From a virus, in the IMG/VR virus record IMGVR_UViG_3300027901_000440, positions 1 through 29,643 of that record: a stretch of 29,643 nt of DNA; one strand, written 5' to 3'. Under the pieces are notes generated by a model. The model worked only from the letters and a program-made list of their open reading frames with translations, searched no databases and had not been told where the DNA came from. A program made the translations under genes and the position numbers. Below are positions 1,306-18,788 of the stretch, piece after piece (the first letter of the stretch is position 1; each line of letters begins with the position of its first letter).

Positions 1306-1356
1306 TTGATTGATCTGACTGGACGCTAACAACAAAAGCAAATGGAGCAAAACCAA

Positions 1357-1611
1357 ATGAACAAAACAACACTGGAGATTGACGAGGATGGGAATGTTAG
1401 GTGCCTATATACCGACATCATCGATTTGTATTCCATCGGGAAAATTGTCAAAGTGAGCAAGGCGTCTAACGTTGAGTTCAACGAGGCAAAGCAAAGCTGG
1501 GAAGTATTATCTCTCAGCGGAGAAGTCTTGTACACTCATACGAACCGAGAAACAGCAATCGAGTGGGAAATAGAACATTTCAGCCCGACTGGACCATATT
1601 GGGATGGCTAA
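1357..1611 (+). CDS. Small phage protein of unknown function
   Basis: An 84-aa protein I do not recognise. An earlier in-frame ATG lies at 1342, but GGAG at 1344-1347 sits nine bases before the ATG at 1357, so the later start is chosen. It is acidic, begins with an alternating-strand segment (TTLEIDEDGNVRCLY) and reads like a small all-beta protein with a short C-terminal helix (TNRETAIEWEIEHF). The last eight bases overlap the HNH endonuclease that follows. No catalytic motif, signal peptide or membrane segment is visible. Confidence 0.65.
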   Translation: MNKTTLEIDEDGNVRCLYTDIIDLYSIGKIVKVSKASNVEFNEAKQSWEVLSLSGEVLYTHTNRETAIEWEIEHFSPTGPYWDG

Positions 1612-6058: not shown

Positions 6059-6316
6059 ATGGAATGTCTGGTCTGCCGTCAAAAAATAAAGCCTGGGGAA
6101 CAAATATTTTGGGGTAATCAGATGATTTATTGTGGCCCCGGAGAACACGATTGCAGCTATTCTGAGGCTGCGTCAGGTCTAGTAGGGGCAGCACACCTGG
6201 GTTGTCTGGAAAATCGCATAGCGGCTGCGAGAGAATTAAATACGGTGGTTTCTGAGCCCGTGGTGGAGTCTGTTGTAACGCGGTCGAATGCCTTGGACGC
6301 TTTTAAGGAGTTGTAA
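6059..6316 (+). CDS. Small zinc-finger-like protein
   Basis: An 85-aa protein starting at the ATG preceded by GCGGAGGG. An in-frame ATG-like start at 6038 has no such site. MECLVCRQKIKPGEQIFWGNQMIYCGPGEHDCSYS.....HLGCLE offers CxxC plus later Cys/His ligands for one or two zinc ions, arranged like a LIM/treble-clef-type finger. The C-terminal half is helical and less conserved in appearance. Function unknown; it may be a regulatory or host-takeover protein. Confidence 0.65.
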   Translation: MECLVCRQKIKPGEQIFWGNQMIYCGPGEHDCSYSEAASGLVGAAHLGCLENRIAAARELNTVVSEPVVESVVTRSNALDAFKEL

Positions 6317-6318
6317 TA

Positions 6319-6522
6319 ATGAAGGGTATTAGGTGGATTGAGAACAATGATACCAAATGGTCATGATATAGTGCTGCTGTATTAGGTAATATGGCGCTGC
6401 ATTGTGAACCAGAAATTAGATATCCTTATCCATATTACAAATACAAAAAATATTTTGCTGGATATCGTGGCGGTGTTTATTATAATGGTCAATTTGTCGA
6501 AATGGAGTTAATAAATACTTGA
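6319..6522 (+). pseudogene. Small protein gene interrupted by an in-frame TGA
   Basis: From ATG 6319 (good GGAG upstream at 6307-6310) the frame reads 15 codons, MKGIRWIENNDTKWS, then TGA at 6364-6366. It continues open in the same frame for a further 51 codons (YSAAVLGNMALHCEPEI...GGVYYNGQFVEMELINT) to TGA 6520-6522. Both halves look like one aromatic-rich small protein of 67 residues, and the stop occupies a position where Trp (TGG) would need a single base change. The rest of the window uses TGA as a normal stop, so recoding is unlikely. I read this as a fresh nonsense mutation, possibly a read-through site. It lies immediately upstream of HEG1. Confidence 0.6.
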
Positions 6523-6547
6523 AGTCTCAAGTTTGGGTTGATATAAA

Positions 6548-7180
6548 ATGCCAAGATTAGTTGATCTTACTGGGAAAAGATTCGGAAGACTTGTTGTTAT
6601 TAAACGAGTTGTTAATAACAAGTGGGGACAATCTAGATGGTTGTGTTTATGCGATTGTGGTAAAAAACCGATTGTTTCCAATACTCATCTTCGAACTGGT
6701 AGCGTACAGAGTTGTGGATGTATGAATATAGAAAAACTTACTAGACACGGAGGGGCCAAAAGGGGCAAACGCCTGAAGATTTATGCGGTATGGGGCGCTA
6801 TGATTCAAAGATGTACGAATCCTAATAATAGGCAGTGGAAAAATTATGGCAATAGAGGGATTACAGTTTGTGAACGATGGATGAAATTTGAAAATTTTCT
6901 TGAAGATATGGGTAAACCTCCTGGACATGGATATTCAATCGAAAGAAAAGATAATAATGGAAATTATTGTAAAGAAAATTGTATTTGGGCAACCAGAAAA
7001 GAACAAAACAGGAATAAGAGAGATAATCATTTAATTACTTTTGGTGGTAAAACACAGTGCTTAACAGACTGGGCCGAAGAAATTGGTATAAAACAAGAAA
7101 CTATTCTAAAACGTTTTAGAATTAGTTGGTCAATAGAAAAAGCTTTAACAACACCAGTCAAAAAACGGAGAAAAAGATGA
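6548..7180 (+). CDS. HEG1: homing-endonuclease-like protein (zinc ribbon + YGgRGI/HNH-like + HTH)
   Basis: A 210-aa member of a phage family usually annotated as HNH/AP2-type endonucleases. The N-terminus is DLTGKRFGRLVVIKR, then a zinc ribbon (CLCDCG...SCGC). The middle reads YAVWGAMIQRCTNPNNRQWKNYGNRGITVCERW...DMGKPPGHGYSIERKDNNGNYCKENCIWAT, the presumed nuclease/DNA-binding core. The C-terminus (CLTDWAEEIGIKQETILKRFRISWSIEKALTTP) is a helix-turn-helix-like targeting module. Three paralogues lie at 11084, 22656 and 27444. The gene is strongly AT-rich and ends in an ATGA overlap with the BrxL-like gene, so the two are translationally coupled. The exact catalytic type is uncertain. Confidence 0.8.
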   Translation: MPRLVDLTGKRFGRLVVIKRVVNNKWGQSRWLCLCDCGKKPIVSNTHLRTGSVQSCGCMNIEKLTRHGGAKRGKRLKIYAVWGAMIQRCTNPNNRQWKNYGNRGITVCERWMKFENFLEDMGKPPGHGYSIERKDNNGNYCKENCIWATRKEQNRNKRDNHLITFGGKTQCLTDWAEEIGIKQETILKRFRISWSIEKALTTPVKKRRKR

Positions 7181-8655
7181 CTGTTACTGAGGGAAAAAAT
7201 AAGGTGTTGGATATATTCCCAGAACGAGGAATAGTCGTTGACAAATCTCTTACTGTTTTGAACGATCAGTGGAAAAAATTACCTTCTTTTGTTGTAGATT
7301 ACTTAATTTCAGAAATGGTTGATCCGGCTGATCCAACTGATGGTATTTCAAAAATTATAGAGTTACTCGATAAGCATGTAATTAATGCAGATCAGAAGGA
7401 TTGGATCAAGAGTGTTATTCGGGAACATGGGTCATATACTCTATTGGGGCGATTGAAACTCAGATATGATGAAAAGATTGATCAATATTGGTGTGATGTT
7501 GAATGTCTGGGTAATCAACACGTAAGAATTGATCCGTTTTTAGTGGCCGAATACGGAGAAAATTTGCTTACCACAGGAGCGTGGGGTGTATTCGAAATCT
7601 CGTATGATGATTCCTTTGTTTTGCGAAATAAACTTTTTCCATTTTTGGTAACTTCTTTTAAGCCAATTCAAATCGTGGGAATAGATATTGATACTTGGAT
7701 ATCTCGCCGAAATAAATTTTCACAAAATGAGTGGTTGGATTTAATGATTACCAGCATAGGTTTTGATCCAACTTGTTTATCAGAAGAAGAAAAATGGTTA
7801 TATATGGTTCGTCTTGTTCCGTTCATAGAAGAAAATGTAAATCTAATAGAATTAGGTGGGTGTATGACGGGGAAGACATTCACTGCGCAAAGTCTAAGCT
7901 CTTATGGTTTCGTAATTTCTGGGAGTCAAACCACAGTAGCGTCTCTCTTCTATGACAAACTTAGGAGACAGCTTGGTCTCGTAGGTGGTAGGGATGTTGT
8001 AATTTTTGATGAATTTGCAGCTACAGGGGTTGCCAATAAATGGTCATCTGGGCAATCTTCTTTGGTTGATCTAATGAAAGATTATATGAATAGCGGGAGG
8101 TTCGGACGAGGTAGTTTTGAATGCGCCTCTGGATGTTCTTTTATGTTTCTAGGAAATATTGATTGTAACATAGAAAAAAGAGAGGTATCTTCGAGATACA
8201 GGAGCTTATTTTCTCCACTTCCACAAATTATTAATAGGGACAGAGCATTTCTAGATCGTCTGCATGGATTTTTGCCAGGTTGGAAAATATCTACAATTAA
8301 AGAGTCAAGTATGGCAAAAACACCAGCATTCATGGCTGACTATCTTAGTGAAATTATGCACAGAATGAGAAATCGTAGTTATTATCATGTTATACAACAA
8401 AATGTGGATTTTGGTAAAATGGGACAAAGAGATCAGAGATCACTTGTTAGAATTGGATCGGGGTTGTTGAAGTTGGTGTTTCCGCACAGGAGTATTGATA
8501 CTATCAAACCAAATGAGTTGAAAACTGTTTTGGATATTGCTGTCGATTTAAGGGGGAGGGTGGTGGATCAATTAGCTATAATTTCTCCTGGTGAATTCAA
8601 GGGTGTTAAATTATCTTACAAAATTAAGGAGAATAATAGTGATACCAATAAATAA
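7177..8655 (+). CDS. BrxL-like AAA+ ATPase (BREX-type), lacking the C-terminal Lon-like domain
   Basis: A 492-aa protein matching the BrxL (Lon-related BREX) family in its N-terminal and AAA+ regions. Walker A is GGCMTGKT (227-234), followed by SSYGFVISGSQTTVASLF and GLVGGRDVVIFDEF (Walker B, D273-F280). Next come LVDLMKDYMNSGRFGRG, SFMFLGNID and the diagnostic FLDRLHGFLPGW (about 358-369), with 'RDQRSLVRIGSGLLKLVFPH' and 'AVDLRGRVVDQL' closer to the end. BrxL is a ring-forming DNA-binding ATPase of BREX phage defence. Full-length BrxL is nearly 700 aa, so the Lon-protease-like C-terminus is missing. The ATG overlaps the HEG1 stop, and AAGGAG near the end serves the methyltransferase. It is AT-rich, foreign to the surrounding genes. 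No other BREX core gene is visible. Confidence 0.85.
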   Translation: MTVTEGKNKVLDIFPERGIVVDKSLTVLNDQWKKLPSFVVDYLISEMVDPADPTDGISKIIELLDKHVINADQKDWIKSVIREHGSYTLLGRLKLRYDEKIDQYWCDVECLGNQHVRIDPFLVAEYGENLLTTGAWGVFEISYDDSFVLRNKLFPFLVTSFKPIQIVGIDIDTWISRRNKFSQNEWLDLMITSIGFDPTCLSEEEKWLYMVRLVPFIEENVNLIELGGCMTGKTFTAQSLSSYGFVISGSQTTVASLFYDKLRRQLGLVGGRDVVIFDEFAATGVANKWSSGQSSLVDLMKDYMNSGRFGRGSFECASGCSFMFLGNIDCNIEKREVSSRYRSLFSPLPQIINRDRAFLDRLHGFLPGWKISTIKESSMAKTPAFMADYLSEIMHRMRNRSYYHVIQQNVDFGKMGQRDQRSLVRIGSGLLKLVFPHRSIDTIKPNELKTVLDIAVDLRGRVVDQLAIISPGEFKGVKLSYKIKENNSDTNK

Positions 8656-9301
8656 AATCTATTGTGCAAACTGCATGGATAGATTTGTAGAATTAGATGA
8701 TGGGAGTGTTGATCTTGTATTAACAGATATTCCTTATGGAGAAGTTAATAGACACTCCAACGGTTTAAGAATGCTAAATAAAAAGGATGCTGACATATTA
8801 GCATTTGACCTATACAAATTTTTAGAACAGATATATCGAATAGCAAGTGGGACTATCATTATTTTTTGTGGTAAAGAGCAGATTAGTTTAATTCATTCAT
8901 TTTTTCATAACAAACAAAGAAATAAATTAGGAACAGTTCGGCAATTAGTCTGGGAAAAAACAAATCCATCTCCAATGAATGGACAACATGTTTTTTTGAG
9001 TGGTATAGAAAATGCTATATGGTTCAAAAAATCTGGTGCAATATTTAATGTTCACTGTCGCAACACGGTTTTCAGGTTTCCAAACGGAAGAAACAAATTG
9101 CATCCTACAGAAAAAAATCATCTTCTCTTACAAGAATTGATAGAGATATGTTCTAAACCAGGAGATTTAGTATTTGATCCATGTTGTGGTAGTGGTGCCC
9201 ATTTATTAGTTGCCAAACAACAAGGTCGTCGGATTATTGGTTTTGAGTTGTCTGAAGCATATGCTAAAATAGCACAACAAAGGCTTCGTAAACAGGAGTA
9301 G
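8639..9301 (+). CDS. DNA methyltransferase (N4/N6 type, beta-class order)
   Basis: A 220-aa SAM-dependent methyltransferase. Start GTG 8639, seven bases after AAGGAG and inside the last codons of the BrxL-like gene; the open frame upstream to 8591 has no such site. The catalytic motif is TDIPYGE (D30, the D/N/S-P-P-Y motif with Ile in place of the first Pro). HPTEKNHLLLQELI and FDPCCGSGAHLLVAKQQGRRIIGFELSEAYAKIAQQRL (motif I, from F179) give the beta-class order with the catalytic motif first. It probably methylates an exocyclic amino group of A or C in a short site. It is coupled to BrxL, implying that the two proteins work together. It is smaller than the BREX methyltransferase PglX (over 1000 aa), so it is not a PglX fragment by size. 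Confidence 0.88.
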   Translation: MIPINKIYCANCMDRFVELDDGSVDLVLTDIPYGEVNRHSNGLRMLNKKDADILAFDLYKFLEQIYRIASGTIIIFCGKEQISLIHSFFHNKQRNKLGTVRQLVWEKTNPSPMNGQHVFLSGIENAIWFKKSGAIFNVHCRNTVFRFPNGRNKLHPTEKNHLLLQELIEICSKPGDLVFDPCCGSGAHLLVAKQQGRRIIGFELSEAYAKIAQQRLRKQE

Positions 9302-9304
9302 CAA

Positions 9305-11071
9305 ATGAGTTTTGTAACCGAACCTGAAGTAGCTTTAATTGGAAAACCAGTATTGGAAATCGACGGAATCATGAGATTTTTGAATGAACATAGGTTAGAT
9401 TGGCCAGAGCTTACGGAGAAGCTCGAATCCATGATGAGTCTTGGAGACGACGACGGAGAGTGGCTCGTTGAATTTGCCGGGCGCATGTGCTACCAAAGTT
9501 GGGCCAAGAAAGGCGAGACCGCAAATGGAAGGTCTCACGAAGACCATATTCGGCATTTGATCGAAATCGGTCACGGAAGCTGTCTTGAACACGCTACATT
9601 TAATTTTGCTATTTGGAATATAAGTCGGAGCCTCAGCCATGAACTAGTTCGTCACCGGATTGCGTCGTATTGTTTAGCTGGCGACACTGTAATATATAGT
9701 TTTAGTGCTAACAAAAGACATCCTGGTAAAAAAAGAACAATAAAACAATTATTTGAATGGTATAATGATCCAAAGAGGGCTAGCAGGATTGGGATGATAA
9801 GAGTAAAGTGTTTTGACGGAGAACAAATTGTTCCCGCTCAGATAAAGAGAATATGCCAGTCCGGTAAAAAGAAACTTATTAAAATAATAACTAAGAATGG
9901 ATATACAATTAGATGCTCAATTCATCACCGTTTTATGATAGATAATAACGAAGGCACTATTGTTTGGGCTCCAGCAGAATCTCTTAAAACCGGTGATCAA
10001 ATAGCGGTTAATGGAGTTAGGGTATACAAAGATAAAAAATGGTTGAATAAAAAATACAACATTGAATGTTTGTCTCAAGAAGAAATTGGTAAAATGTGTG
10101 GGGTATCCAGGCATACAATTAGGTCATGGATAAGAAAGTTGCATTTACAAAAGCCACTCGGGTCATGGACAATCGGAACTGTTCCGTGGAATAAAAATAA
10201 ATCAGGATATATAATTAAGCGTGAATTTACTGATGAAGAAAAATCTGTAATTTCAGCAAGAATGACCGGGGACAAGAACCATAGATGGAAAGGAAATAAT
10301 GCGACACAACATGCTGGTAGAATAAGGGCATACAGATTATTTGAGCAGCAATCTTGTAAAAATTGTGGTAATAAGGATGGCCATCGACATCATATTGATG
10401 GTAACACACTTAACAATAACGAAGATAATATACAGTTTTTATGCAATAGATGCCATAAAATTGAGCATTCTTTCATAGAAGGAAAAATATTAAGAACTAT
10501 TAGATTTGACGAGATTGTTTCAATTGTTGATGATGGTATTGAAATGACATATGATTTAGAAGTTGATCATCCACAACACAATTTTGTAGCAAACGGATTT
10601 ATAACCCATAATTCCCAGCTTAGTCAACGTTACGTGGATTCGTCCAGCGTCGCCTTCATAGTCCCGCCAGCTATACAAGAGTTGGCCAGGACGGACGAAG
10701 AGGCTTATCGGGCGTGGGTCGAGCACTGTGAGCGTTCTCGGCAGCTTTACGAAGAACTGACTGGCAAGCTGTCGGAAATGTACGGAAATATCGATAGTAA
10801 GCTAGAGTGGCGCAAAAAGGCGCGTCAGGCGGCACGGTCGGTATTGTCCAACGCTACTGAGACGAAAATCGTCGTCAGCATGAACGCCAGGGCTGTACGA
10901 CATCTGATCGAGCTTCGGGCTAATCCGGCAGCCGATGTTGAAATTCGTGCTCTTGCTGTCAAGGTCTGCCGAATCCTTCAGGATAAGGCCCCGCTGTTTG
11001 CCCACGGTCTCGGAATTGTGCAACTTTCTGACGGCACCGAGGGTGTAGAATCGGCCTTCAAAAGAGTCTAG
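9305..11071 (+). CDS. thyX: FAD-dependent thymidylate synthase ThyX, intein-containing
   Basis: A 588-aa precursor; after removal of a 314-aa intein the mature enzyme is 274 aa, normal for ThyX. It makes dTMP from dUMP using FAD, NADPH and methylene-tetrahydrofolate. The ThyX signature RHRx7S is formed only after splicing: ...LVRHRIASY joined to SQLSQRYVDSS. Other family parts are FAGRMCYQSW, HGSCLEHATFNFAIWNISR upstream and ARSVLSNATETKIVVSMNARAVRHLIELRA downstream. The start has AGGAG, three bases after the methyltransferase stop. The first 100 or so bases share the AT-rich composition of the cassette before them; from about 9420 and again after 10613 the codons are GC-richer. Confidence 0.95.
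   Translation: MSFVTEPEVALIGKPVLEIDGIMRFLNEHRLDWPELTEKLESMMSLGDDDGEWLVEFAGRMCYQSWAKKGETANGRSHEDHIRHLIEIGHGSCLEHATFNFAIWNISRSLSHELVRHRIASYCLAGDTVIYSFSANKRHPGKKRTIKQLFEWYNDPKRASRIGMIRVKCFDGEQIVPAQIKRICQSGKKKLIKIITKNGYTIRCSIHHRFMIDNNEGTIVWAPAESLKTGDQIAVNGVRVYKDKKWLNKKYNIECLSQEEIGKMCGVSRHTIRSWIRKLHLQKPLGSWTIGTVPWNKNKSGYIIKREFTDEEKSVISARMTGDKNHRWKGNNATQHAGRIRAYRLFEQQSCKNCGNKDGHRHHIDGNTLNNNEDNIQFLCNRCHKIEHSFIEGKILRTIRFDEIVSIVDDGIEMTYDLEVDHPQHNFVANGFITHNSQLSQRYVDSSSVAFIVPPAIQELARTDEEAYRAWVEHCERSRQLYEELTGKLSEMYGNIDSKLEWRKKARQAARSVLSNATETKIVVSMNARAVRHLIELRANPAADVEIRALAVKVCRILQDKAPLFAHGLGIVQLSDGTEGVESAFKRV
9671..10612 (+). mobile_element. Intein with HNH homing endonuclease in ThyX
   Basis: A 314-aa in-frame insertion. 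It starts with C1 (CLAGDTVIYS) and ends in THN followed by Ser+1 of the extein, the residues needed for splicing. Block B is represented by IRCSIHHRFM, and the C-terminal block by MTYDLEVDHPQHNFVANGFITHN. Between them lie a helix-turn-helix (EEIGKMCGVSRHTIRSWIRK), a GDKNHRWKG motif and an HNH nuclease with zinc cysteines (CKNCGNKDGHRHHIDG...NIQFLCNRCH). It splits ThyX inside the RHR...S active-site motif, so the enzyme cannot work unless the intein splices. It is AT-rich compared with the exteins. Confidence 0.93.
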
Positions 11072-11083
11072 GAGTTTATTTTT

Positions 11084-11716
11084 GTGTCAAAAATAGCGAA
11101 TGTTCCTGGACAACGTTTTGGTTTATTAACTATTATCAAACGTGTTGCAAATAATAAATGGGGCAGAGCATGTTGGCTATGTCTTTGTGATTGTGGAAAC
11201 GAAGTAATTAGTAGTAGTGATGACTTAAATAGAGGTGACACAAAAAGTTGTGGATGTACAAGAATTTTACATGGACACAATAGGAGGACAAATAAATCTC
11301 AATCCTATAGGGCGTGGGATAGTATGATCCAACGATGCACCAATTCTAAAAATAAATCTTATCATCGGTACGGAGGTCGTGGTATTACTGTCTGCCAAAG
11401 ATGGATGCAATTTGAATATTTCATTCAAGATATGGGAGAACCACCTACAGATGGATACACACTTGACAAAATCGATAATAATGATAATTACTACAAAGAG
11501 AATTGTCGTTGGGCTACAATGAAAGAACAAGCAAGAAACAGACGAAATAACAAAATGCTAAGTCACAAAGGAACAACCATGTGTTTGACAGCCTGGGCTG
11601 AAAAATTAGGTGTTAGGAAGGATATTCTTTCATGGAGGTTAAATTATGGTTGGTCAACCGAAAAAACCTTGACTACTCCGGTACAAAAATACAAAAAGAA
11701 TCGAACAAAAGATTGA
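11084..11716 (+). CDS. HEG2: homing-endonuclease-like protein, paralogue of HEG1
   Basis: A 210-aa protein beginning with GTG, nine bases after AGGAG at the ThyX stop. Same architecture as HEG1: GQRFGLLTIIKR, zinc ribbon CLCDCG...SCGC, core YRAWDSMIQRCTNSKNKSYHRYGGRGITVCQRW...DMGEPPTDGYTLDKIDNNDNYYKENCRWAT, and C-terminal LTAWAEKLGVRKDILSWRLNYGWSTEKTLTTP. It sits between ThyX and the tyrosine recombinase, is AT-rich, and is directly followed by the GGACGTATAATAAGA element that also precedes HEG3. Both neighbouring genes appear intact here. Confidence 0.8.
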   Translation: MSKIANVPGQRFGLLTIIKRVANNKWGRACWLCLCDCGNEVISSSDDLNRGDTKSCGCTRILHGHNRRTNKSQSYRAWDSMIQRCTNSKNKSYHRYGGRGITVCQRWMQFEYFIQDMGEPPTDGYTLDKIDNNDNYYKENCRWATMKEQARNRRNNKMLSHKGTTMCLTAWAEKLGVRKDILSWRLNYGWSTEKTLTTPVQKYKKNRTKD

Positions 11717-16230: not shown

Positions 16231-18788
16231 GTGTGCCAGTATACAATCCAGAGGGGTTTGCCCTGCAAATTTTCCAGGATAGATACGCTATTCACGCAGA
16301 AGAAACATTTGGACAGGCTTGCGAGCGTGTCGCAAGATCAATCGCTGATGCTGAAATGGGGACAAAACGCGACGAATATTTTGCCAGATTTCTGGAGATT
16401 TTGCAAACCAATCGTTTTTCCCCTGGTGGACGAATATGGCGTGGGGCAGGACGACCAAGAGGGCAGATGTTGAATTGTTTTTGTATACCTGCCGAAGATA
16501 GTCGAGAAGGATGGGGTGATGTTCTGCGTAATGTGACTATTATATCTGGTACAGGTGGTGGTGTTGGTATTAATTTCTGTATGGGACCAAAAACTAAAAT
16601 TTTAACACAGGATTTTAGGTGGATACCGCTTGAACAAGTGTGTATCGGAGATAAAATTATTGGATTCGACGAAGAATACAATAACGCATGTCGTCATTTG
16701 AGACCATCAAATGTACTTTCTGTGGACAAAGTATTTTTGCCTACCTATAAGATAAAAACAGAAAAGGGAGAGATGATCGTTTCATCTACGCACCCGATTT
16801 TGGCAAGAGCGATAAGGAAAAATTATAAACGCAAGGGTTACGGTTTTGGTTGGGTACAAGCACAGCATCTTACCACAAATCATGAATTGGCATATGCTTG
16901 TGATCCGTGGTCAATTGATTTTCGCAATCAACAATTTTGTGCATGGATGGGTGGGATGTTGGATGGAGAGGGATGTTTATCCAGACCATCTTCTACTAAA
17001 GACAGAAAATATAATACGAGACTTAGCATCGGGCAAAACAAAGGACCAGTTTTCGATGAAATTGGTCGTATTTTTGATATTTTGGGTATCAATTACAAAA
17101 TATATAAAAATAGTGGTAATAAATGTCATCAATATGTTATGTCTTCCAAATGGGATTCCATGAAAGTTATAGCTAGCTGTCCTACCATCAGGATGTGGGC
17201 TAATCGTAATAGCATTTGGGATGGTGCGAAAATACATAGCAAAAGTAATAGACACATTAAAATTGATTCAATAGAATACATTGGCCCACAGGAACTTATA
17301 GCGATCAGTACATCTACCCATACATTCATAGGTGATGGATTTTTTCAACATAATTCACGAATACGTCCGAGAGGTACCGCAATCCGTGGTACTGGCGGGG
17401 AAGCAACCGGTGCTGTTAGTTTAATGCGAGTAGTTAATGCTGTATGTAACGAACTTAGAGAAGGGGGTGGTAGACGTGGAGCCCTTTTATTCTGTCTTTA
17501 CTGGAAACATCCTGATTTATTAGAATTTTTAGAGGCTAAATTGGATAAAAAAGAATTAACAAATGCCAACATATCCGTATTAATTGACAATGAATTTCTA
17601 AAGTTGGTCGATGAAGATGGAGAAATTATTTTTAAGTGGCAGGGTGAGGAACGTGGTCACATATCAGCTAAAAAGGTATGGGATAAAATCATACAAAACG
17701 CTTGGGAAGGTGGTGACCCAGGATTTCTGAATGCACAATTAATTAATGACCAAAATACTATAGCCTATACCAAAGGTGGGGAATTTTCAGCTACTAATCC
17801 ATGTGGTGAAATACCACTTGAAGAATTCGGTTGTTGCTGTCTTGGTGCCATTAATCTGCACACACATATAATTGATGGAAAAATTGATTGGGATTTATTG
17901 GAAGAAACTACTGCAATGGGTGTTAGATTTCTTGACAATGTTCTCGATCAAAATAATTACCCATTACCAATTATAGAAGAAACAGCCCAAAAACATCGTC
18001 GGATCGGTCTCGGTGTAATGGGGCTCCACGATATGCTGCTGGAATTGGGTCTGAAATATTCAAGCGAAGAGGCGAGAGAAACAGTAGACAAAGTGATGGA
18101 TTTTGTCAAGAAACAAGCCTACCATGCAAGCATCACTTTAGCGATAGAGAAGGGTCCATTCCATGCATTCGATGTAGATCAGCACATCAAAACAGGATTC
18201 ATAAAAAAGTATCTGCCCCGCAGGCATCATAGACTGATCAGAGAACATGGTATTCGCAATTGTGCTTTGTTGACAATCGCACCCACCGGAACAATATCAA
18301 TCGTGGCAGATTGCTCATCAGGTATTGAGCCGCTATTCCAACCAGTTTACGAGAGGCGATTCAACAAGCACAAAGATATGCACAGGAACGAGGAAAGAGA
18401 CAGGGCTGTCGAGGTGGTTGTACATCCACTGCTAAGGCGGTTCTTGGAAGCCAAAAGATCAGTTAAACACTTCCAGGGTGCCCACGACATAGAACCAGGA
18501 GCACATTTGGCCATGCAGATGGTGTGTCAGAGACATATTGACAATTCTATATCCAAGACAATCAATCTGCCGACAGATTATTCTGTCGATCAATTGTCTC
18601 GGGAGATGAGACAGTATATAGCAGAACTCAAGGGGATCACAGTGTACCGGGATGGTAGCAAGGGCGAATCACCATTGATCCCATTGCCCTTATCAGAAGC
18701 AAAACAACACTTGGGGCAAATGGAAGAGGAAGCGGCGGTCAACGATTGTCCCAGTGGTGTATGTGAGATAACGAAAGGTGGTAGCTAA
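16227..18788 (+). CDS. nrdJ: Class II (B12-dependent) ribonucleotide reductase, intein-containing
   Basis: An 853-aa precursor; 594 aa after removal of a 259-aa intein. It reduces ribonucleotides to deoxyribonucleotides. Visible: RFSPGGRIWRGAG, first redox Cys in MLNCFC, GTGGGVGINF joined after splicing to SRIRPRGTAIRGTGGEATG, the radical loop SATNPCGEIPLEEFGCCCLGAINL (N..C.E), the partner NCALLTIAPTGTISI, and KGITVYRDGSK plus CPSGVC near the C-terminus, typical of NrdJ. There is no ATP-cone and no small-subunit gene nearby, consistent with class II. The GTG start overlaps the HD stop (GTGA) behind GGGAGAGAGG. Sequence from about 16500 to 17990 is AT-rich, well beyond the intein itself. Confidence 0.93.
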   Translation: MSVPVYNPEGFALQIFQDRYAIHAEETFGQACERVARSIADAEMGTKRDEYFARFLEILQTNRFSPGGRIWRGAGRPRGQMLNCFCIPAEDSREGWGDVLRNVTIISGTGGGVGINFCMGPKTKILTQDFRWIPLEQVCIGDKIIGFDEEYNNACRHLRPSNVLSVDKVFLPTYKIKTEKGEMIVSSTHPILARAIRKNYKRKGYGFGWVQAQHLTTNHELAYACDPWSIDFRNQQFCAWMGGMLDGEGCLSRPSSTKDRKYNTRLSIGQNKGPVFDEIGRIFDILGINYKIYKNSGNKCHQYVMSSKWDSMKVIASCPTIRMWANRNSIWDGAKIHSKSNRHIKIDSIEYIGPQELIAISTSTHTFIGDGFFQHNSRIRPRGTAIRGTGGEATGAVSLMRVVNAVCNELREGGGRRGALLFCLYWKHPDLLEFLEAKLDKKELTNANISVLIDNEFLKLVDEDGEIIFKWQGEERGHISAKKVWDKIIQNAWEGGDPGFLNAQLINDQNTIAYTKGGEFSATNPCGEIPLEEFGCCCLGAINLHTHIIDGKIDWDLLEETTAMGVRFLDNVLDQNNYPLPIIEETAQKHRRIGLGVMGLHDMLLELGLKYSSEEARETVDKVMDFVKKQAYHASITLAIEKGPFHAFDVDQHIKTGFIKKYLPRRHHRLIREHGIRNCALLTIAPTGTISIVADCSSGIEPLFQPVYERRFNKHKDMHRNEERDRAVEVVVHPLLRRFLEAKRSVKHFQGAHDIEPGAHLAMQMVCQRHIDNSISKTINLPTDYSVDQLSREMRQYIAELKGITVYRDGSKGESPLIPLPLSEAKQHLGQMEEEAAVNDCPSGVCEITKGGS
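16578..17354 (+). mobile_element. Intein with LAGLIDADG endonuclease in NrdJ
   Basis: A 259-aa in-frame insertion after GGGVGINF, a known hot spot for inteins in ribonucleotide reductases. It begins with C1 (CMGPKTKILTQD) and ends in QHN before Ser+1. Block B is MIVSSTHPILARA. The endonuclease is LAGLIDADG-type, with the motif FCAWMGGMLDGEGCLSR and a following RLSIGQNKGPVFDEIG segment. Only one clear LAGLIDADG helix is seen, so the nuclease may be reduced or act as a dimer. AT-rich like its flanks. Confidence 0.93.

What the first reader, a model, noticed from the sequence alone, without database searches (positions are those of the whole stretch)
6548..9301. HEG-linked BrxL/methyltransferase pair: a possible minimal BREX-derived module on a phage
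Seen: three translationally coupled, AT-rich genes (HEG1, ATGA overlap, BrxL-like AAA+ without Lon-like C-terminus, 17-base overlap, DNA methyltransferase), foreign in composition to the flanking genes. Known: BrxL is a DNA-binding ring ATPase acting with PglX, PglZ, BrxC and others in BREX defence; no such partners are visible here. Inference: the pair could be a stand-alone two-gene system that marks DNA with the methyltransferase and acts on unmarked competitor DNA through the BrxL-like motor, or it could antagonise host BREX/restriction. Delivery behind a homing-type endonuclease would let it spread between phages.
Basis: partly seen in the sequence, partly recalled or inferred. Interest (0 to 1): 0.8.

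Follow-up and report, generated by a model that had tools for sequence, protein, structure and literature searches.

The report
Phage core gene resembling BREX BrxL
A ring-shaped DNA-binding motor known from a bacterial anti-phage defence system (BREX BrxL) turns out to be a standard, fixed-position gene in a lineage of large uncultivated phages; in this phage it sits between a homing endonuclease and a methyltransferase because that stretch was swapped in from a relative, not because the three form a defence kit.

Summary
The genes and overlaps are real. The 492-aa protein is a BrxL-family protein: TIGR02688 408 bits (cutoff 329), both Pfam BrxL domains, predicted fold Z 39.7 to solved BrxL. 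It has no C-terminal domain. It is not half of a mobile two-gene module. In IMG/VR I found 30 phage contigs (up to about 180 kb) with this BrxL (43-71% identity). In the main lineage it lies at a fixed place between a small Cys-rich gene and ThyX; all 13 sampled contigs of 60 kb or more carrying this lineage's DnaB have it. Phage BrxLs form one clade apart from cellular BREX BrxLs. PglZ and BrxC were not found; DnaB, primase and PolIII are present elsewhere. The window's MTase neighbours no other BrxL; HEGs flank only some. Flanking genes place this phage with one relative (85-93%), BrxL with another group: a diverged allele replaced the resident one between about 6268 and 9303, explaining the foreign composition. 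Against a pure 'no link' reading: a different (D12) adenine MTase lies downstream of BrxL in five divergent relatives, and large main-lineage genomes carry a core MTase far away. Best reading: a BREX-independent, MCM-like ring ATPase used in the phage's own DNA metabolism; function inferred.

The parts
6059..6316 (+). Small Cys-rich (zinc-ribbon-like) protein, 85 aa; directly or nearly directly upstream of BrxL in most main-lineage relatives; candidate true operon partner of BrxL
   Evidence: no Pfam match
6548..7180 (+). Freestanding homing-type HNH endonuclease (HEG1), one of several similar copies in the window
   Evidence: PHROG 374 1e-72; paralogues at 11084, 22656, 27414
7177..8655 (+). 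BrxL-family AAA+ ATPase, 492 aa: BrxL_N plus BrxL_ATPase, no C-terminal domain
7864..7890 (+). Walker A region of BrxL (residues 230-238, MTGKTFTAQ)
   Evidence: K233/T234 invariant in the phage alignment
8005..8016 (+). Walker B region (FDEF, residues 277-280); E279 matches E280 of Acinetobacter BrxL
   Evidence: invariant in 28 other phage BrxLs
8639..9301 (+). Orphan beta-class N6/N4 DNA methyltransferase, 220 aa, motif IV TDIPY, motif I FDPCCGSG
   Evidence: PF01555 92 bits; motifs
6268..9303 (.). Xenologous block: flanks 82-88% DNA identity to L033, BrxL inside only 64%; L033 has neither HEG nor MTase here
   Evidence: trees
9305..11071 (+). ThyX with intein: conserved downstream neighbour of BrxL
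   Evidence: PF02511 and Intein_splicing

Best explanation
The gene is the local copy of a phage-specific, C-terminal-domain-less BrxL subfamily that is a core gene of a lineage of large tailed phages. Shown by computation: family membership, lack of the C-terminal domain, intact ATPase residues, fixed synteny, no detectable PglZ or BrxC, and replacement of this phage's copy by a diverged allele from the same lineage, flanked by an HEG and an unrelated MTase. Inferred: as in solved BrxL, ATP drives the N-terminal (HTH plus OB) and AAA+ domains to form a ring on double-stranded DNA. Without the C-terminal domain that joins two rings tail to tail in BREX BrxL, it should work as a single ring. 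The phage most likely uses it as an MCM-like DNA-loaded motor in its own replication, recombination or restart, in addition to its own DnaB replisome. The MTase is cargo in a variable slot between BrxL and ThyX; HEG cutting plus recombination probably drove the allele swap.
For: BrxL; matches solved BrxL 12-470 at 4.6e-92; model Z 39.7 over 453 residues to 8EMH, then MCM helicases at Z about 16 over residues ~67-480. Core gene: present in the Def/Cys-rich/ThyX/Xer/ClpP context in all 16 of the 18 Xer-bearing contigs that reach far enough; all 13 contigs of 60 kb or more with the lineage's DnaB also carry BrxL (contig names). Phage clade 100/99 against 17 cellular BrxLs; phage 465-492 aa (one contig-edge copy shorter), cellular 619-723 aa. 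Walker B Glu invariant in 28/28 others. PglZ 0/9, BrxC 0/14 records. DnaB in 9 of 9 records (8 above cutoff), primase and PolIII alpha in G001. Allele replacement: window-L033 85-93% in most flanking proteins but 67% in BrxL; AU p=0.0004 against the flank grouping in the BrxL tree and p=1e-15 for the converse; breakpoints.
Against: No experiment shows activity for any phage BrxL, and helicase activity was not demonstrated for Acinetobacter BrxL (PMC10164562). Two pore residues tested there (R104, K287) are not conserved in phage copies, so DNA contacts may differ. A full DnaB replisome makes an extra ring motor non-obvious. Recurrent adenine MTases near BrxL or elsewhere in the genomes fit a modification-linked role. 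The phages are uncultivated and hosts unknown.
Confidence: 0.5

Rival explanations
1. BREX-like phage weapon: a phage adenine MTase marks phage DNA as self and the BrxL ring blocks or processes unmarked DNA (host chromosome or competitor phage).
For: A D12 MTase lies 7-1876 bp downstream of BrxL in all five divergent relatives; the 11 large main-lineage records tested plus G412 carry a core MTase with motif IV DPPD/DIPD; the window adds a third type beside BrxL.
Against: The MTase types are different and mostly not adjacent in the main lineage; the five adjacent D12 cases are one clade, so about two independent linkages; orphan MTases are common in large phages (own knowledge) and no base rate was measured here. 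BrxC and PglZ, needed for both methylation and restriction in BREX (PMC13326643), were not found; BrxL is dispensable for BREX methylation.
Confidence: 0.22
2. Counter-defence: the phage BrxL is a decoy or dominant-negative of host BrxL, or competes for its DNA or loader.
For: It retains the ring-forming N-terminal and AAA+ domains but lacks the C-terminal domain that joins rings (PMC10164562).
Against: ATPase residues are under strict conservation, unusual for a decoy; only about 35% identity to cellular BrxL; present in essentially every sampled member, whereas anti-defence genes are usually patchy.
Confidence: 0.13
3. The first reader's mobile HEG-BrxL-MTase module that spreads between phages as a unit.
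For: Foreign composition and sharp block boundaries; BrxL alleles of the window's clade have a full HEG directly upstream more often (4/6 against 2/14, Fisher p 0.04, not corrected for kinship).
Against: BrxL is at the same place with or without HEG; the window's MTase type is next to no other BrxL, and none of 19 loci of its relatives holds a BrxL.
Confidence: 0.05

Closest known systems
BrxL of type I BREX (TIGR02688/TIGR02653; Acinetobacter BrxL, PDB 8EMC/8EMH)
   Same: N-terminal HTH/OB region and MCM-type AAA+ domain align over residues 12-470; Walker A and B, subunit-interface L134 and most R265 positions kept
   Different: No C-terminal Lon-like or nuclease domain; no pglZ or brxC found; phage core gene; separate clade; pore residues R104 and K287 not conserved
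BrxL of type 4 BREX
   Different: Type 4 lies in a phosphorothioation BREX operon; none was sampled here, so closeness by tree is untested
MCM replicative helicases
   Same: Predicted fold matches OB plus AAA+ of MCM at Z about 16
   Different: Low identity (9-14%); the phages encode a DnaB-type replicative helicase
Phage orphan N6/N4 methyltransferases (e.g. phage ENP2309, Klebsiella phage KB2)
   Same: 43-67% identity for the nearest, same TDIPY motif in the IMG/VR relatives
   Different: Neighbourhoods of the IMG/VR relatives hold no BrxL

Membership tests
BrxL protein family | Profile match above curated cutoff | tested here: met
   TIGR02688 408.3 bits against cutoff 329.3; PF13337 328 and PF20442 88 bits
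BrxL protein family | Fold of N-terminal plus AAA+ domains | tested here: met
   Z 39.7, 453 residues to 8EMH (model mean pLDDT 79.6; poor at 251-270 and 310-315)
BrxL protein family | Walker A Lys and Walker B Glu | tested here: met
   K233 and E279 invariant
Type I BREX BrxL (long form) | C-terminal Lon-like or nuclease domain | tested here: not met
   ends at residue 492; long BrxL profiles matched only to about 470-480
BREX system | PglZ present | tested here: not met
   0 of 9 related records; some records are fragments; the window itself is a fragment
BREX system | BrxC present | tested here: not met
   0 of 14 related records
BREX system | PglX-type methyltransferase | tested here: inconclusive
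   The MTase beside BrxL is 220 aa and matches PF01555 and type II/orphan models, not PglX; PglX was not searched for in whole relatives
Replicative helicase of the phage | Sole hexameric replicative helicase | tested here: not met
   DnaB_C in 9 of 9 records, 8 above cutoff; primase and PolIII alpha in G001
Beta-class DNA methyltransferase | Order motif IV, TRD, motif I; intact motifs | tested here: met
   TDIPY near N-terminus, FDPCCGSG near C-terminus, conserved in relatives
BrxL of type 4 BREX | Groups with type 4 BrxL in a tree | not tested
   No type 4 BrxL was recovered; all sampled cellular copies were 619-723 aa

The most novel reading that the evidence does not exclude
A phage-encoded, BREX-independent self/non-self system in which a phage adenine methyltransferase marks phage DNA and an autonomous BrxL ring acts on unmarked DNA, making the BrxL step of BREX work without BrxC or PglZ.
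Probability: 0.17. Interest if true: 0.88.

Novelty: new variant of a known kind. Interest (0 to 1): 0.6.

Why it matters
BrxL is known as a component of an anti-phage defence, and how it acts is unresolved. A BrxL that large phages themselves carry as a core gene without detectable BREX partners gives a naturally minimal form (ring domains only) on which its autonomous DNA activity can be tested, and raises the question whether BREX recruited BrxL from, or shares it with, a phage DNA-metabolism enzyme. No paper in the searched open library reported phage-encoded BrxL, which is not proof of absence.

Tried and rejected
First structure job with 14 near-identical sequences gave a poor AAA+ core (mean pLDDT 61.8); repeated with 27. 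Tried to sample short cellular (type 4) BrxLs with PDLC02505 in 398 genomes: all hits were long forms except the phage-bearing MAG contig, so type 4 placement is untested. BrxL-like hits among 50,697 phage records are few and 30-35% identical: copies resembling bacterial BREX BrxL, or two divergent faecal scaffolds: no isolate of this lineage. Considered degeneration of the window copy because of its long branch (0.51): rejected, only 4 private changes at otherwise invariant columns and catalytic residues intact. Considered the PF13578 proteins downstream of BrxL in L032, L036, L071, L078, L088 as DNA MTases: the family is mostly small-molecule methyltransferases (own knowledge), so not counted. 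No base rate of MTases in comparable large phages was measured.

Full report
What is there. The finding's anatomy is correct. HEG1 (6548-7180) overlaps the 492-aa ORF (7177-8655) by ATGA, which overlaps a GTG-started MTase (8639-9301) by 17 bases, with AAGGAG just upstream. The block is 35.5% GC against 43.8% for the rest.

Family. Against solved proteins only BrxL (8EMC, 8EMH) matches, over residues 12-470. The predicted fold matches BrxL at Z 39.7 over 453 residues, then MCM helicases at about Z 16 including the OB region. It stops before the C-terminal domain.

A core phage gene. Sequence scans found 30 other IMG/VR contigs with this BrxL, 43-71% identical, GC 27-61%. In the main lineage the order Def, small Cys-rich protein, BrxL, ThyX, Xer, ClpP, sigma-like is fixed (labels). 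A marker test that does not use BrxL: of 18 contigs carrying the lineage's Xer, all 16 reaching far enough have BrxL in place. All 13 contigs of at least 60 kb carrying the lineage's DnaB also appear in the BrxL list. Phage BrxLs form one clade (100/99) apart from 17 cellular BrxLs, all of which are longer; the annotated plasmid ones sit next to pglZ or one gene away. PglZ and BrxC were not found in the related records, and DnaB, primase and split PolIII alpha are encoded elsewhere, so BrxL is neither part of a BREX operon nor the sole replicative helicase.

Why it looks foreign. Flanking proteins put the window next to L033 (85-93%; 100/99), but its BrxL is 67% to L033 and groups with L027, L029, L030, L031 and L040 (99/94). 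Each data set rejects the other's grouping (AU p 0.0004 and 1e-15). DNA identity to L033 drops after 6267 and resumes at 9304, the ThyX start; L033 lacks HEG and MTase there. L033's BrxL has native GC3 0.62, the window's 0.29. So a diverged allele replaced the resident one. HEG homing with co-conversion is a plausible driver; the HEG association is weak (Fisher p 0.04, not corrected for kinship).

The methyltransferase. It is an intact beta-class enzyme with TDIPY. No relative of it lies beside any other BrxL, and none of 19 loci of its relatives holds BrxL. The BrxL-ThyX gap is a variable slot, 1 to about 2000 bp. However, in the five most divergent relatives a D12 adenine MTase lies 7-1876 bp downstream, and the 11 large main-lineage records plus G412 have a core MTase far from BrxL. 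These are at most two independent linkages and no base rate was measured, so I treat a BrxL-MTase functional link as open, not shown.

Mechanism. Shown for Acinetobacter BrxL (PMC10164562): ATP-dependent ring assembly on dsDNA by N-terminal and AAA+ domains, with the C-terminal domain joining two rings. Here the first two are conserved with catalytic residues invariant, the third is absent; two tested pore residues differ. Inference: a single-ring, DNA-loaded motor used in phage DNA metabolism. Rivals: MTase-guided action on non-self DNA, or interference with host BREX. PMC12839542 reports type 4 BREX BrxL with the same short architecture, so the short form as such is not new; what appears new is its status as a phage core gene without detected BREX partners.

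Noticed in passing
window 1324-1581: 98.5% identical to L033 while neighbouring DNA is 76-85%, directly beside an HNH gene (1604-2263) that L033 lacks: looks like a homing co-conversion tract.
   Followed up: partly
window 9671-10610 and about 16600-17360: ThyX and the ribonucleotide reductase both appear to carry inteins; several relatives have intein-free or differently inserted copies.
   Followed up: no
G001 9895-10644 and orthologues in 11 other records (loci L133-L144): Core beta-class MTase with unusual motif IV DPPD or DIPD instead of DPPY.
   Followed up: partly
L032 2165-2728, L036 8451-9029, L071 2128-2685, L078 9631-10179, L088 9688-10224: A PF13578-type methyltransferase-fold protein recurs in the slot downstream of BrxL (Pfam match for L032 and L036; the others by BLAST).
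   Followed up: partly
window 6059-6316: Small Cys-rich protein conserved just upstream of BrxL across the main lineage; HEGs insert between the two.
   Followed up: partly
G001 88514-90361 and 98629-100974: DNA polymerase III alpha is split into two genes about 8 kb apart.
   Followed up: no
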